Shown here piece after piece: positions 39,704 through 42,983 of a DNA stretch of 64,000 nt; position 1 is the first letter of the stretch, and every line of letters begins with the position of its first letter. The position numbers were made by a program, and so were the translations under genes. Origin of the DNA: Porticoccaceae bacterium (lineage in GTDB: Bacteria; Pseudomonadota; Gammaproteobacteria; Pseudomonadales; Porticoccaceae); NCBI GenBank assembly GCA_024639885.1, contig JAHEGD010000004.1:46182-110181 (forward strand), in the 5' to 3' direction. The notes under the pieces are model-generated. The model made no database searches and was not told the DNA's origin. It worked only from the letters and a program-made list of their open reading frames with translations.

Positions 39704-40081
39704 TTACTCGCCGGTACTGTGCAACGGATAATCTTGCACCAGGCTTTCGGTGGGAATATTTAAGCCATCGTGTAACTTACGAATCATGGTCAGTGTTAGC
39801 TTTCTTCGGTAATTCATCACTTCGGACACACGCCCAGTACCGCCAATATAAGGCACTAAATCCTTATCTCTTAATCCAAATTGCTCCATACGAAAACGAA
39901 TAGCCTCGATGGGATTTGGGGTTTCGATGGGGTGGCGCTTAACTTCGTACGCTTCAATAAGGGTGCCCAGAATGTCTAACTCATCACCCTCTGGCGTGTC
40001 TAGCGCTGCATCCATCAGCATCATAGTGCGCTCTAAAGCAGCCTCATAATCGGCTTCTGTTTTAATTGGCTTAATGTTCAT
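39704..40081 (-). CDS. higA: HigA-type antitoxin, XRE family
   Basis: 125 residues. The N-terminal half has the HigA pattern (I-K-TEADYEAALERTMMLMDA, then ELDILGTLIEAYE and HPIETPNPIEAIRFRMEQ) that wraps the toxin. The C-terminal half is a Cro/XRE helix-turn-helix (LRDKDLVPYIGGTGRVSEVMN). It neutralises HigB and should repress the operon by binding the palindrome at 40391-40407. Its ATG overlaps the toxin stop by 4 bases. Confidence 0.9.
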   Translation of the reverse strand: MNIKPIKTEADYEAALERTMMLMDAALDTPEGDELDILGTLIEAYEVKRHPIETPNPIEAIRFRMEQFGLRDKDLVPYIGGTGRVSEVMNYRRKLTLTMIRKLHDGLNIPTESLVQDYPLHSTGE

Positions 40082-40377
40082 ACCGTCACCGCGTCTATTT
40101 CATCGTACATTTTGTGGCTTCCAACAAAGCGCACATACACCATTCTGTAAGGGTAATTAATCTTTACGATAAGCCGATAGTCATTACCCTTGATGTTAAA
40201 TACTACCCGGCTATCTTGAATAATACTGGCACTGCCAAATTGAGCCTTGAGCTCTTGAGGCGTTGACCAATCGGCTTTAAGTACCTCTTCATGCCATGCC
40301 TCTAGCTGTCCCTGGGAAGCGGAATATTGAGACTGCTCCCAGAACTCGCGCAACGTCTTTTTCGATACTATACGCAT
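40078..40377 (-). CDS. higB: HigB-type mRNA interferase toxin
   Basis: 99 residues, the HigB/RelE-fold toxin: MRIVSKKTLREFWE start, W-TPQELKAQFGSASII, then VVFNIKGNDYRLIVKINY and VYVRFVGSHKMYDEID. It cleaves mRNA on the ribosome. Toxin-first gene order is typical of higBA. A GAGGG site lies 8 bases before the ATG. Confidence 0.92.
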   Translation of the reverse strand: MRIVSKKTLREFWEQSQYSASQGQLEAWHEEVLKADWSTPQELKAQFGSASIIQDSRVVFNIKGNDYRLIVKINYPYRMVYVRFVGSHKMYDEIDAVTV

Positions 40378-40581: not shown

Positions 40582-40807
40582 TCTGCGACCGTCTCCCGCA
40601 GGGACAGTGGGAGCCGAGCTTCTAGGGACGGATTCACGGCGTATCGCAGCACCCAGCGGCAGGCGGGCGGGCGGGTGATCGAGCAAAGCGATACTAGAGT
40701 GCGGCAATGCAGACGAAGCCCCAGATCTAGCCCTGCGCACGGTCTTGGATGACGGTGCATTGGATGTTTGCCCGTGAGGATTGTTACTCTTCATAAAAAA
40801 TTGGGTA

Positions 40808-40821
40808 GAGCCTAGCGGGAT
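40808..40821 (-). repeat. 14-base copy of the tRNA-Ala 3' region
   Basis: GAGCCTAGCGGGAT is identical to 41358-41371 in the T-arm/acceptor end of tRNA-Ala, in the same orientation, about 550 bases downstream of the tRNA. Weaker copies (GGAGCCTAGCTTGG at 41207, GGGGCCTCGCTTGG at 40991) lie between. It may be a relic attachment site or repeat-borne. Confidence 0.5.
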
Positions 40822-40826
40822 TATTC

Positions 40827-41347
40827 GTTTGCCTTGTGCGGCAAACTCCCCCCTTCGGGGGCGCTTCGCGCTCAAAACAACTTCGTTGTTTTGTGAAACC
40901 GCTTTCAGCGGTTCTGCTCACTGCGTTCGCCCAAACAAAAAAACCCCACGCTTCGCGTGAGGGTTGTTACTTTTTGTTTAGGGAACGGGCGGGGCCTCGC
41001 TTGGTCCCTCTCGGCCATCCATGGCCTCCCGGACATTTGTGCTTCCATGCACTTCGTCCCTCTCGGCCATCCATGGCCTCCGGGACATTTGTGCATCCAT
41101 GCACTTCATCGAACGCGCTTTCAGCGGTTCTGCTCACTGCGTTCGCCCAAACAAAAAAACCCCACGCTTCGCGTGAGGGTTGTTATTTTTTGCTTAGGGA
41201 ACGGGCGGAGCCTAGCTTGGTCCCTCTCGGCCATCCATGGCCTCCGGGACATTTGTGCATCCATGCACTTCATCGAACGCGCTTTCAGCGGTTCTGCTCA
41301 CTGCGTTCGCCCAAACAAAAAAACCCCACGCTTCGCGTGAGGGTTGT
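40827..41347. repeat. train of mini-hairpins and repeat blocks downstream of tRNA-Ala
   Basis: Back-to-back perfect hairpins start at 40827: GTTTGCC/GGCAAAC, then CCCCC-TTC-GGGGG, GCGC-TTC-GCGC, AAAACAAC-TTC-GTTGTTTT (40874-40892), AACCGCT-TTC-AGCGGTT (40897-40913) and CACGC-TTC-GCGTG (40947-40959). A block running from CGCTTTCAGCGG to the GAGGGTTGTT end recurs at about 40900, 41116 and 41280. A second block with GGCCAT-CC-ATGGCC and GTGCAT-CC-ATGCAC stems occurs three times (from 41004, 41056 and 41220). No protein is likely here. Confidence 0.85.
41317..41343 (-). terminator. tRNA-Ala rho-independent terminator
   Basis: On the minus strand a CACGC-GAA-GCGTG stem with flanking C/G pairs is followed by seven Ts, 10 bases after the tRNA CCA end. 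Near-identical copies lie at 41153-41179 and 40937-40963. Confidence 0.8.
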
Positions 41348-41352
41348 TTGTT

Positions 41353-41428
41353 TGGTGGAGCCTAGCGGGATCGAACCGCTGACCTCAACACTGCCAGTGT
41401 TGCGCTCTCCCAGCTGAGCTAAGGCCCC
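41353..41428 (-). tRNA. tRNA-Ala (GGC)
   Basis: 76 bases including an encoded CCA. The acceptor stem is GGGGCCT/AGGCTCC with the G3:U70 wobble pair that identifies alanine tRNAs. The D-arm TAGCTCAGCTGGGAGAGC is standard. The anticodon arm is CAACA-CTGGCAG-TGTTG with anticodon GGC, and the T-arm contains GGTTCGATCC. It reads GCC and GCU codons. Confidence 0.97.
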
Positions 41429-41443
41429 GAAAAAGGAAGGCGC

Positions 41444-41472
41444 ATATTAGGGGCGAGCTGCGGCCGTGTCAA
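41444..41472 (-). promoter_or_regulatory. tRNA-Ala promoter
   Basis: On the minus strand a perfect TTGACA (41467-41472), a 17-base spacer and TAATAT (41444-41449), followed by a GC-rich discriminator as in stringently controlled stable-RNA promoters. Confidence 0.8.
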
Positions 41473-41486
41473 GCGTACCGGGCCAG

Positions 41487-42983
41487 TTATTGCGCTAAAT
41501 CGCTACCCAATCCGTCGTACTGCTTCTGGAGCTTTTTGAGCTTTTTATTGCCCAGCCCGCCGAGCAGATCAATCGCATGGCGCAACCTGGCGCGGGTCAT
41601 ATCGGGGCCGAGCAGCTGCATAGAATCCATCACTGAGATCGAGGCAGCAGTGCCGGCGATAGCAATAAACAGCGGCGCCAAAAACGCTTTCAGTTTGATG
41701 CCAAGCTGGTCGGCCAACCCTTTTAGCTCGGCAAAAATCGCGTCGCGCTGCCACGCTTGCAGCGCCTCTAGTCGCCACAGTGAAAACTGCAATACCGCCG
41801 TCAGCTGCTCGTCATCGAGCCCGCTCTGCTGCAGCTGCTCGGCAGTGATGGCGAGGTTGCCTGAGATTAGATAGGCGCCGAGCGGGGCGATATCTGACAG
41901 CGTCTCCATGCGCGCGCGGGCGTGGGGAATAAACGCCATCAACTGCTCGCGGTTGAGCGCCCAGTTAATCAGCTGGTCGGCGAGCTGCTCGTCACTGAGC
42001 TCTTCTCGGATCCAGAGGCCGTTGAGCCAGCTCAGTTTCTCCACATCAAAGATCGGCCCGCCGAGCGAGATACGATTGATGTCGAACGAAGCGATCATCT
42101 CGGCCAGCGAGAACTTCTCGCTCTCGTCGGGCATCGACCAGCCCATCCGGCCGAGGTAGTTGAGCAGCGCTTCGGGCAGGTAGCCCATCCGCTGGTAGTA
42201 GAGAATACTGGTCGGGTTTTTGCGCTTGGAGAGCTTGCTCTTATCCGGGTTGCGCAGCAGCGGCAGGTGGCAAAACTCCGGCTGCTGCCAGCCAAAGTAC
42301 TGATAAAGCAAAATATGTTTGGGCGCCGAGTTGATCCACTCTTCGCCGCGGATCACGTGGCTAATCTCCATCTCGTGGTCGTCGACCACATTGGCGAGAT
42401 GGTAGGTGGGCAGGCCGTCGGCCTTCATCAGCACCTGCATATCCACCTGCGACCAGTCGATGATGATCTCGCCGCGCAGCATGTCCTGAAACCGGCATTC
42501 GCCCTCGCTGGGCACTTTCATACGGACAACGTGGCTCTCCCCTGCGGTCAGTTTGGCGTTGACCTCGTCGCTGGAGAGTGCCAGACAGTGGCCGTCGTAA
42601 CCGGTAGAGCGCTTGGCTGCCATCTGCTCGGCGCGCACCGCGTCGAGCCGCTCGGCCGAACAGAAACAGTGGAAGGCGTGGCCATCCTCAACCAGCTGGG
42701 CGGCGCGCTCGGTGTAGAGCGCGCTGCGCTCGCTCTGCCGGTAGGGGCCCTTGGCGCCACGGACGTCCGGGCCCTCGTCCCACTGCAGGCCGAGCCAGTT
42801 GAGCGCCTTGAGAATCTGCTGCTCTGACTCAGGAGTGGAGCGCTGCTGATCGGTGTCTTCAATCCGCAACAAGAACTCGCCGCCGTGCTGCTTGGCAAAC
42901 ACCATGTTGAACAGCGCCACATAGGCTGTGCCAACGTGGGGGTCGCCGGTCGGCGATGGGGCGATGCGGGTTCTAACGGTCAT
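41487..42983 (-). CDS. gltX: glutamyl-tRNA synthetase
   Basis: 498 residues, class I synthetase. It charges tRNA-Glu with glutamate. The HIGH-type motif is [13 protein letters not shown] near residue 9 and the KMSKS-type motif is SKLSKRKN near 248. [11 protein letters not shown] supplies glutamate-binding residues, and the C-terminal anticodon-binding helical domains are complete. It diverges from dusA and lies 58 bases upstream of tRNA-Ala on the same strand, but that tRNA has its own promoter. Confidence 0.96.

What the first reader, a model, noticed from the sequence alone, without database searches (positions are those of the whole stretch)
40827..40963. Train of perfect mini-hairpins capped by the same triloop
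Five consecutive stems (40848-40861, 40861-40871, 40874-40892, 40897-40913, 40947-40959) all have a TTC loop on the plus strand, that is GAA on the tRNA strand; four close with C-GAA-G. DNA mini-hairpins of the GCGAAGC type are known to be unusually stable. Stem sequences differ completely while the cap is kept, which suggests selection on structure. They follow tRNA-Ala and recur in part at 41116 and 41280.
Basis: partly seen in the sequence, partly recalled or inferred. Interest (0 to 1): 0.6.

Follow-up and report, generated by a model that had tools for sequence, protein, structure and literature searches.

The report
Hairpin repeats trailing a tRNA gene
The string of tiny hairpins is real and belongs to tandem repeat units that follow transfer-RNA genes, of the kind long known behind one E. 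coli tRNA gene; neighbouring units here carry instead a conserved pair of hairpins that look built to bind the global regulator CsrA.

Summary
The five hairpins exist (ends off by 1-2 nt) and are not chance. They are not one free-standing object. On the tRNA-Ala strand the 3' flank holds three tandem units: an intrinsic terminator (hairpin 5), a T-arm palindrome (hairpin 4), a payload, and a copy or remnant of the tRNA 3' end.

This is the architecture of the E. coli tyrT repeats (RtT RNA), but the window does not match RF00391. C-GNA-G caps mark such units: behind 140 tRNA/tmRNA genes of four genomes there are 94 non-terminator GNA hairpins against 10.2 expected; the opposite-strand form sits at background, 13 against 10.3. 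The exact GAA cap is not conserved.

Units 1-2 carry another payload: a two-hairpin module with GGA loops resembling CsrA/RsmA sites. Its stems covary (10 of 13 pairs). A model of it matches 45 of 112 family genomes; 66 of 109 places re-read lie near a tRNA or tmRNA gene, all 66 on its strand. Rfam gave only sub-threshold matches for it. RNA or DNA function, transcription and CsrA binding are untested.

The parts
41353..41428 (-). tRNA-Ala (GGC), head of the array; an ORF I read as gltX lies upstream at 41487-42983 (-)
   Evidence: ARAGORN, RF00005 61.8 bits; ORF
41444..41472 (-). promoter-like site of the tRNA
   Evidence: consensus scan only
41317..41342 (-). terminator 1, GAA-loop stem plus T run, just after the tRNA
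41279..41294 (-). unit 1 T-arm palindrome GAACCGCT-GAA-AGCG; GAACCGCTGA is the reverse complement of part of the tRNA T-arm
41220..41279 (-). unit 1 GGA two-hairpin module
   Evidence: R1 68.4 bits (this copy is in the model)
41204..41217 (-). remnant of tRNA-Ala 3' end closing unit 1
41153..41178 (-). terminator 2
41115..41130 (-). unit 2 T-arm palindrome
41056..41115 (-). unit 2 GGA module, first copy
   Evidence: R1 68.4 bits (nearly identical to a copy in the model)
41004..41055 (-). unit 2 GGA module, second copy with imperfect outer stem; the 52-nt tandem repeat
   Evidence: R1 49.1 bits (this copy is in the model)
40988..41001 (-). remnant of tRNA-Ala 3' end closing unit 2
40873..40893 (-). 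train hairpin A, 9 pairs, GAA cap
   Evidence: alignment A2
40861..40871 (-). train hairpin B, GAA cap
40849..40861 (-). train hairpin C, GAA cap; the hairpin whose C-GNA-G cap is kept in 13 of 14 aligned units
40804..40821 (-). displaced copy of the tRNA-Ala 3' end (A58 onward), decayed CCA

Best explanation
A unit is a terminator (present here, absent at tyrT by eye), an antisense-plus-sense copy of the local tRNA T-arm, a payload of stable hairpins on the tRNA-sense strand, then the tRNA 3' end from about A58. Shown: this anatomy, its recurrence at many tRNA genes, the strand-specific C-GNA-G caps and the interchange of payloads. Inferred mechanism: copying is anchored at the T-loop and 3' end, so the functional tRNA is always regenerated at the head of the array. 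RNA that reads past the terminator folds into compact hairpins that survive tRNA processing as an RtT-like fragment. Where the payload is the GGA module (units 1-2), that fragment offers paired GGA loops and would titrate CsrA/RsmA. CsrA binding and transcription of the array are not shown.
For: Same anatomy at E. coli tyrT (three RF00391 hits in L223) and in this genome's own tRNA-Tyr array (RF00391 42.0 bits against a gathering score of 45). Copies match the local tRNA: 23 of 119 flanks exceed the 99th percentile of other-tRNA controls for sense copies (1.2 expected), 11 of the 23 starting exactly 19 nt from the tRNA 3' end; antisense 8 of 119 (the window's own locus is not among them because its full copy lies beyond the 350 nt examined). 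GNA hairpins 94 against 10.2 expected, TNC 13 against 10.3. Consensus fold of 14 units: 9 of 10 pairs with two-sided changes. A train of the same plan behind tRNA-Ala in G095. GGA module: 10 of 13 pairs covary, score 0.421 against 0.109 shuffled, 0 of 500 shuffles as high; GGA in both loops in 85 of 94 distinct copies; csrA in this genome. Between tRNA-Cys and tRNA-Leu in G001 four modules lie with no terminator-like site, so they are probably transcribed.
Against: In the window each unit starts with a strong terminator, so the payloads need read-through. Rfam scores stay below gathering: RF02902 32.4 of 39.8, RsmY 22.1 of 57, and no RF00391 match in the window region. The antisense acceptor copy is degenerate here. 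The wobble test for RNA selection on the trains is inconclusive. Of 109 distinct GGA-module places re-read, 43 have no tRNA or tmRNA within 600 nt. The module search used a model built from tRNA/tmRNA-linked copies, which favours that kind. 12 of 14 tRNA-Ala flanks of relatives printed show no such unit by eye. No expression or binding data exist.
Confidence: 0.6

Rival explanations
1. The trains are DNA-level elements: single-stranded DNA folds at GNA-capped mini-hairpins, which drives template switching and tandem copying next to tRNA genes; no RNA function.
For: Perfect stems; GNA loops are the known extra-stable DNA cap (search listing only; otherwise recalled). Train loci show no significant G.T excess, 18 to 13 against background 268 to 306, p=0.27. 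Sense-antisense-sense tRNA pieces look like template switching. Many trains lie behind terminators. A 175-bp rtT tandem-repeat difference between Salmonella genomes is listed (PMC2658671, passage).
Against: One-strand bias of the caps and the conserved GGA loops with covarying stems fit RNA better; over all flanks the G.T excess is borderline, 30 to 18, p=0.05; RtT RNAs were seen on Northern blots in A. pleuropneumoniae (PMC4986893, passages).
Confidence: 0.25
2. Site-specific mobile mini-elements: an integrase inserts units at the tRNA T-loop, the unit carrying the 19-nt tRNA end that restores the gene.
For: Copies start 19 nt from the tRNA 3' end in 11 of 23 significant flanks; the displaced distal tRNA end is decayed in the window; different tRNA genes are used.
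Against: Units also contain an antisense copy of their own host tRNA, hard to explain for a travelling element (8 of 119 flanks significant); similar units sit at the tRNA 5' half. No integrase was searched for.
Confidence: 0.12
3. Plain tandem duplication of a tRNA-terminator segment that then decayed; hairpins are by-products of terminator-like sequence.
For: Three terminators identical over the 26 nt scanned and units 1-2 95-99% alike over the aligned repeats.
Against: Does not explain GNA and GGA loop enrichment away from terminators, shared architecture at many tRNAs, or conservation across genera.
Confidence: 0.1

Closest known systems
RtT RNA / E. coli tyrT repeats (RF00391)
   Same: Tandem units after a tRNA gene; antisense T-arm, sense T-arm, GNA-capped mini-hairpins, then 19 nt of the tRNA 3' end
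   Different: Window lies at tRNA-Ala, has a terminator in every unit, a degenerate antisense acceptor, mixed payloads, and no RF00391 match
AaHKsRNA22 (RF02902), Aggregatibacter sRNA
   Same: Window 40812-40904 (-) aligns over the whole model, 32.4 bits, E 4e-4
   Different: Below the gathering score of 39.8; function of the family unknown to me
CsrA/RsmA sponge RNAs (CsrB, RsmY; clan CL00106, with TwoAYGGAY RF01731)
   Same: Several GGA motifs in loops of short stems; RsmY weak match 22.1 bits at 40940-41061 (-), CsrC weak match 17.2 bits over the tRNA-Leu modules of L235; SELEX site RUACARGGAUGU in hexaloops (PMC7652899 passage)
   Different: Sits in tRNA/tmRNA flanks in many genomes, paired in a fixed two-hairpin module with an outer stem; below gathering scores
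3'ETS-leuZ tRNA-spacer sponge (E. coli)
   Same: A tRNA-transcript spacer acting as a sponge (PMC7154689 passages)
   Different: That one interacts with sRNAs such as RyhB; here the proposed partner is a protein
GNA-loop DNA mini-hairpins (GCGAAGC type)
   Same: Same cap
   Different: Seen here only as a search listing, mostly aptamer papers; no evidence here that DNA is the acting form

Membership tests
RtT RNA (RF00391) | Score at or above 45 bits | tested here: not met
   No RF00391 match in window 40750-41500 up to E 10. This genome's tRNA-Tyr array: 42.0 bits
RtT RNA (RF00391) | Tandem units downstream of a tRNA, each ending in about 19 nt of the tRNA 3' end | tested here: met
   18-nt copy with one mismatch at 40804-40821; shorter remnants at 41204-41217 and 40988-41001
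RtT RNA (RF00391) | Antisense then sense T-arm before the hairpins | tested here: inconclusive
   T-arm palindrome present; antisense acceptor/T-arm 3' part degenerate by eye
RtT RNA (RF00391) | Released from the tRNA transcript as RNA | not testable with these tools
   No expression data
AaHKsRNA22 (RF02902) | Score at or above 39.8 bits | tested here: not met
   32.4 bits
CsrA/RsmA sponge RNA | Several GGA motifs in hairpin loops | tested here: met
   Six GGA hairpins in units 1-2, one with an ATGGAA loop, one inside an imperfect outer stem
CsrA/RsmA sponge RNA | Rfam score of a clan family at gathering | tested here: not met
   RsmY 22.1 of 57 bits
CsrA/RsmA sponge RNA | csrA present in the genome | tested here: met
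   G000:C36:113816-113971, PF02599 92.5 bits
CsrA/RsmA sponge RNA | Binds and titrates CsrA | not testable with these tools
   None
CsrA/RsmA sponge RNA | GacA-controlled promoter | not tested
   None

The most novel reading that the evidence does not exclude
Leaders and trailers of tRNA and tmRNA genes in this family carry a conserved two-hairpin CsrA/RsmA-binding module, so that transcription of the translation machinery itself sets the level of free CsrA; RtT-type arrays are general carriers that swap payloads, here GNA trains and GGA modules.
Probability: 0.35. Interest if true: 0.82.

Novelty: new variant of a known kind. Interest (0 to 1): 0.55.

Why it matters
The E. coli tyrT repeats have been known for decades (recalled) without an agreed role that I know of. 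Showing the same architecture at many tRNA genes in distant relatives, with strand-specific caps and exchangeable payloads, turns them into a comparative problem. The GGA module adds a testable proposal: tRNA and tmRNA transcripts as CsrA sponges, linking translation capacity to a global post-transcriptional regulator.

Tried and rejected
Constant GAA cap: rejected by the sister genome. Genome-wide GAA enrichment: not seen, 6 of 630 in 240 kb. Phage origin: of 59 phage records with a match, the 20 listed all match the tRNA part of the query (query 3-95, one to 129; tRNA at 13-88). Search by DNA in the family gave 8 of 112 genomes, because stems diverge. GGCCANGGANGGCC as a sponge tag in the whole family: mixed, with many hits in other contexts and the reversed control also matching in some genera. 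RNA-versus-DNA test on trains: inconclusive; terminator stems in the same loci behaved as RNA (8 to 1), as a positive control.

On the GGA module the raw wobble count is 20 G.T to 74 A.C, which taken at face value speaks against RNA selection. 66 of the A.C cells come from one column pair that I take to be misaligned in the tRNA-Leu type (its inner stem is one pair shorter); leaving that pair out gives 19 to 8. The exclusion was made after seeing the result.

Left out before counts: alignment A3 (model R1) holds 13 modules; not entered were the near-identical window copy 41056-41115, second or later copies in L089, L262 and L235, and the degenerate G001 tmRNA copy. Alignment A2 holds 14 of 18 units tried: ArgACG (cut by contig end), LeuTAA and SerGGA (longer) were left out and Pro was not located. 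One search listed 122 places; 109 distinct ones were re-read. One search's 113 placements held three counted twice (L341 and L355 overlap) and one repeat of a partial match; one search is the corrected tally. Two rows in G064 were assigned to an ARAGORN permuted-tmRNA call that I take to be false; the true tmRNA lies just upstream.

Literature: in the rows listed I saw no paper on CsrA-binding modules in tRNA flanks. That RtT RNAs come from tyrT and other tRNA operons is in print (PMC4986893 passages, citing Bosl and Kersten 1991, which I could not read). Only an open-licence subset is held.

Full report
WHERE. The window lies in a 2.2-Mb draft genome (G000, 39 contigs, 97.8% complete). The nearest named gltX relatives are HTCC2207/SAR92-clade and other Porticoccaceae. 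The finding lies in the 3' flank of tRNA-Ala(GGC), minus strand 41428-41353, which follows the gltX-like ORF.

OBSERVATION. The five hairpins are there with small coordinate errors. GAA/TTC triloops are not common in this genome: 6 of 630 triloop hairpins with stems of 5 or more in 240 kb. The cluster is therefore not chance. Two members are parts of repeated modules: 40947-40959 is the stem of an intrinsic terminator present in three identical copies, and 40897-40913 is a palindrome made from the tRNA T-arm, also in three copies.

ANATOMY (read on the minus strand). tRNA-Ala is followed by three units. Unit 1: terminator 41342-41317, GGGCGAACGCAGTGAGC, T-arm palindrome 41294-41279, GGA module 41279-41220, tRNA 3'-end remnant 41217-41204. 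Unit 2: terminator 41178-41153, the same elements, two GGA modules 41115-41056 and 41055-41004, remnant 41001-40988. Unit 3: terminator 40962-40937, T-arm palindrome 40914-40897, mini-hairpins A-D 40893-40827, then a tRNA 3'-end copy from A58, 40821-40804, with a decayed CCA. GAACCGCTGA of the palindrome is the exact reverse complement of part of the tRNA.

THE SAME KIND ELSEWHERE. In G095 the tRNA-Ala flank has a train of the same plan twice; the first ends in the tRNA 3' end and a terminator, the second does not, and its caps are GAA, GCA and AAA. The sister genome G001 keeps terminator and T-arm stems but has loops ACC, GGC and GAC, so the cap as such is not conserved. The E. coli MG1655 tyrT flank, read as a yardstick, has the same order: antisense T-arm, sense T-arm, GNA-capped hairpins, then the 19-nt tRNA end, and scores as RtT (RF00391). 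RF00391 matches 66 of 369 genomes drawn from the class, 23 of them over its cut-off, and this genome's own tRNA-Tyr array at 42.0 bits. The train itself aligns to RF02902 at 32.4 bits; 5 of 112 family genomes, this one included, have matches to that family, none over its cut-off. PMC4986893 (passages) describes RtT RNAs as released from tyrT and other tRNA transcripts, and two members near tRNA-Asn and tRNA-Lys (there said to lie upstream of them) seen on Northern blots in A. pleuropneumoniae; PMC2658671 (passage) lists a 175-bp rtT tandem-repeat difference between Salmonella genomes. Not all relatives have it: of 14 tRNA-Ala flanks printed, some cut short by contig ends, only two (L008, L017) show a comparable unit by eye.

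STATISTICS. Flanks of 140 tRNA/tmRNA genes in four genomes (38.8 kb downstream; not every tRNA gene is included) were compared with 400 kb from two of those genomes. Away from terminators: GNA triloops 94 against 10.2 expected, TNC 13 against 10.3; GNRA 19 against 4.1, its opposite-strand form 5 against 4.2; TTCG 0 against 0.6; ANGGAN hexaloops 11 against 0.15 in 6 loci (6 of the 11 are in the window's own array), opposite strand 2 against 0.15; AGGAN pentaloops 8 against 0.24 in 7 loci, opposite strand 1. Copies within one array are not independent, so loci are the safer measure: 37 of 140 flanks have a GNA hairpin and 13 of 140 a TNC hairpin, against 366 of 4000 random 350-nt windows for GNA. 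Own-tRNA sense copies exceed the other-tRNA 99th percentile in 23 of 119 flanks, 11 of them starting 19 nt from the 3' end; antisense copies in 8 of 119. The window's own flank is in neither list, since its full copy lies more than 500 nt downstream and only 350 nt were examined. Fourteen aligned units keep C-GNA-G in one hairpin in 13 of 14, and 9 of 10 consensus pairs show two-sided changes.

RNA OR DNA. In train loci terminator stems show G.T over A.C mismatches 8 to 1, as RNA should; the other stems show 18 to 13, not different from the background of 268 to 306 (p=0.27). Over all flanks the figures are 15 to 2 for terminators and 30 to 18 for other stems (p=0.05). The one-strand cap bias fits RNA or one DNA strand. 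I cannot decide.

THE SECOND PAYLOAD. Units 1-2 contain GTGC[ATGGAT]GCAC and GTCCC-GGA-GGCC[ATGGAT]GGCC-GAGA-GGGAC. The same two-hairpin plan, with other stems, sits behind tRNA-Ala in G001, behind tmRNA in G000 and G064, and before tRNA-Leu in G000, G001 (four in a row) and G061, there attached to copies of the tRNA-Leu 5' part. In 13 aligned modules 10 of 13 pairs have two-sided changes, score 0.421 against 0.109 shuffled and at most 0.123 when slid. The loops resemble the CsrA SELEX site (RUACARGGAUGU, mostly hexaloops; PMC7652899 passage); csrA is present. Model R1 finds the module in 45 of 112 family genomes; all 5 hits in G000 and all 9 in G001 are at tRNA or tmRNA genes by position. Of 109 distinct places re-read, 66 lie within 600 nt of a tRNA or tmRNA gene (61 before tRNA-Leu or between tRNA-Cys and it by label, 5 at tmRNA), all 66 on its strand; 43 do not. 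Five of those 43 carry the tRNA-Leu 5' fragment TGGTAGA on contigs that end nearby and three resemble the tmRNA type; others, such as L362 and L368, are stand-alone between genes. GGA is in both loops in 85 of 94 distinct rows, but the rows were found by a model that favours it. In 14 loci with the module Rfam reported only tRNAs and one weak miRNA match at E 0.1; elsewhere only weak RsmY and CsrC matches.

MECHANISM. Shown: architecture, recurrence, strand bias, covariation. Inferred: copying anchored at the tRNA end; read-through or leader RNA; CsrA titration by GGA modules. In the window a terminator heads every unit, which argues that transcription of the payload is conditional. Between tRNA-Cys and tRNA-Leu of G001 no terminator-like site intervenes, the best natural place to test the sponge.

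VERDICT. An RtT-like tRNA-flank array in a new place, with a second payload that I have not found described. I do not file it as RF00391, RF02902 or an RsmY-type RNA because scores at the curated cut-offs were not met.

Noticed in passing
L110 and 17 others of the 30 loci L097-L126 (genus g6 relatives): A perfect GGCC[ANGGAN]GGCC hairpin follows the same gene end in 18 of the 30 loci by eye; in L110, the only one translated, the gene reads by eye as pyruvate kinase. A possible conserved CsrA site at a glycolysis gene's 3' end.
   Followed up: partly
L148, L153 (G061), upstream of tRNA-Ser: Hairpin trains also follow tandem copies of the tRNA 5' half (acceptor to D-arm), so the phenomenon is not limited to tRNA 3' ends.
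   Followed up: partly
L101 about 1338-1630: A GGCC[ATGGAT]GGCC hairpin sits between two glycine riboswitch aptamers in G008.
   Followed up: no
L017 2830-2926 (-): Gilvimarinus locus with a TwoAYGGAY RNA (RF01731, 46.1 bits) about 0.6 kb past tRNA-Ala on the other strand.
   Followed up: no
window 39704-40377 (-): Two overlapping small ORFs that look by eye like a HigB-type toxin and HTH antitoxin pair next to the array; not tested against any library.
   Followed up: no
L197 and L205 downstream of tRNA-Asp and tRNA-Val (G000): A dispersed repeat reading CGTCATCCCGGA...GATCCGGGATCT abuts the tRNA arrays.
   Followed up: no
window 40836-41417 (+) and 40957-41340 (+): Long ORFs across the array look like by-products of the repeats.
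   Followed up: no
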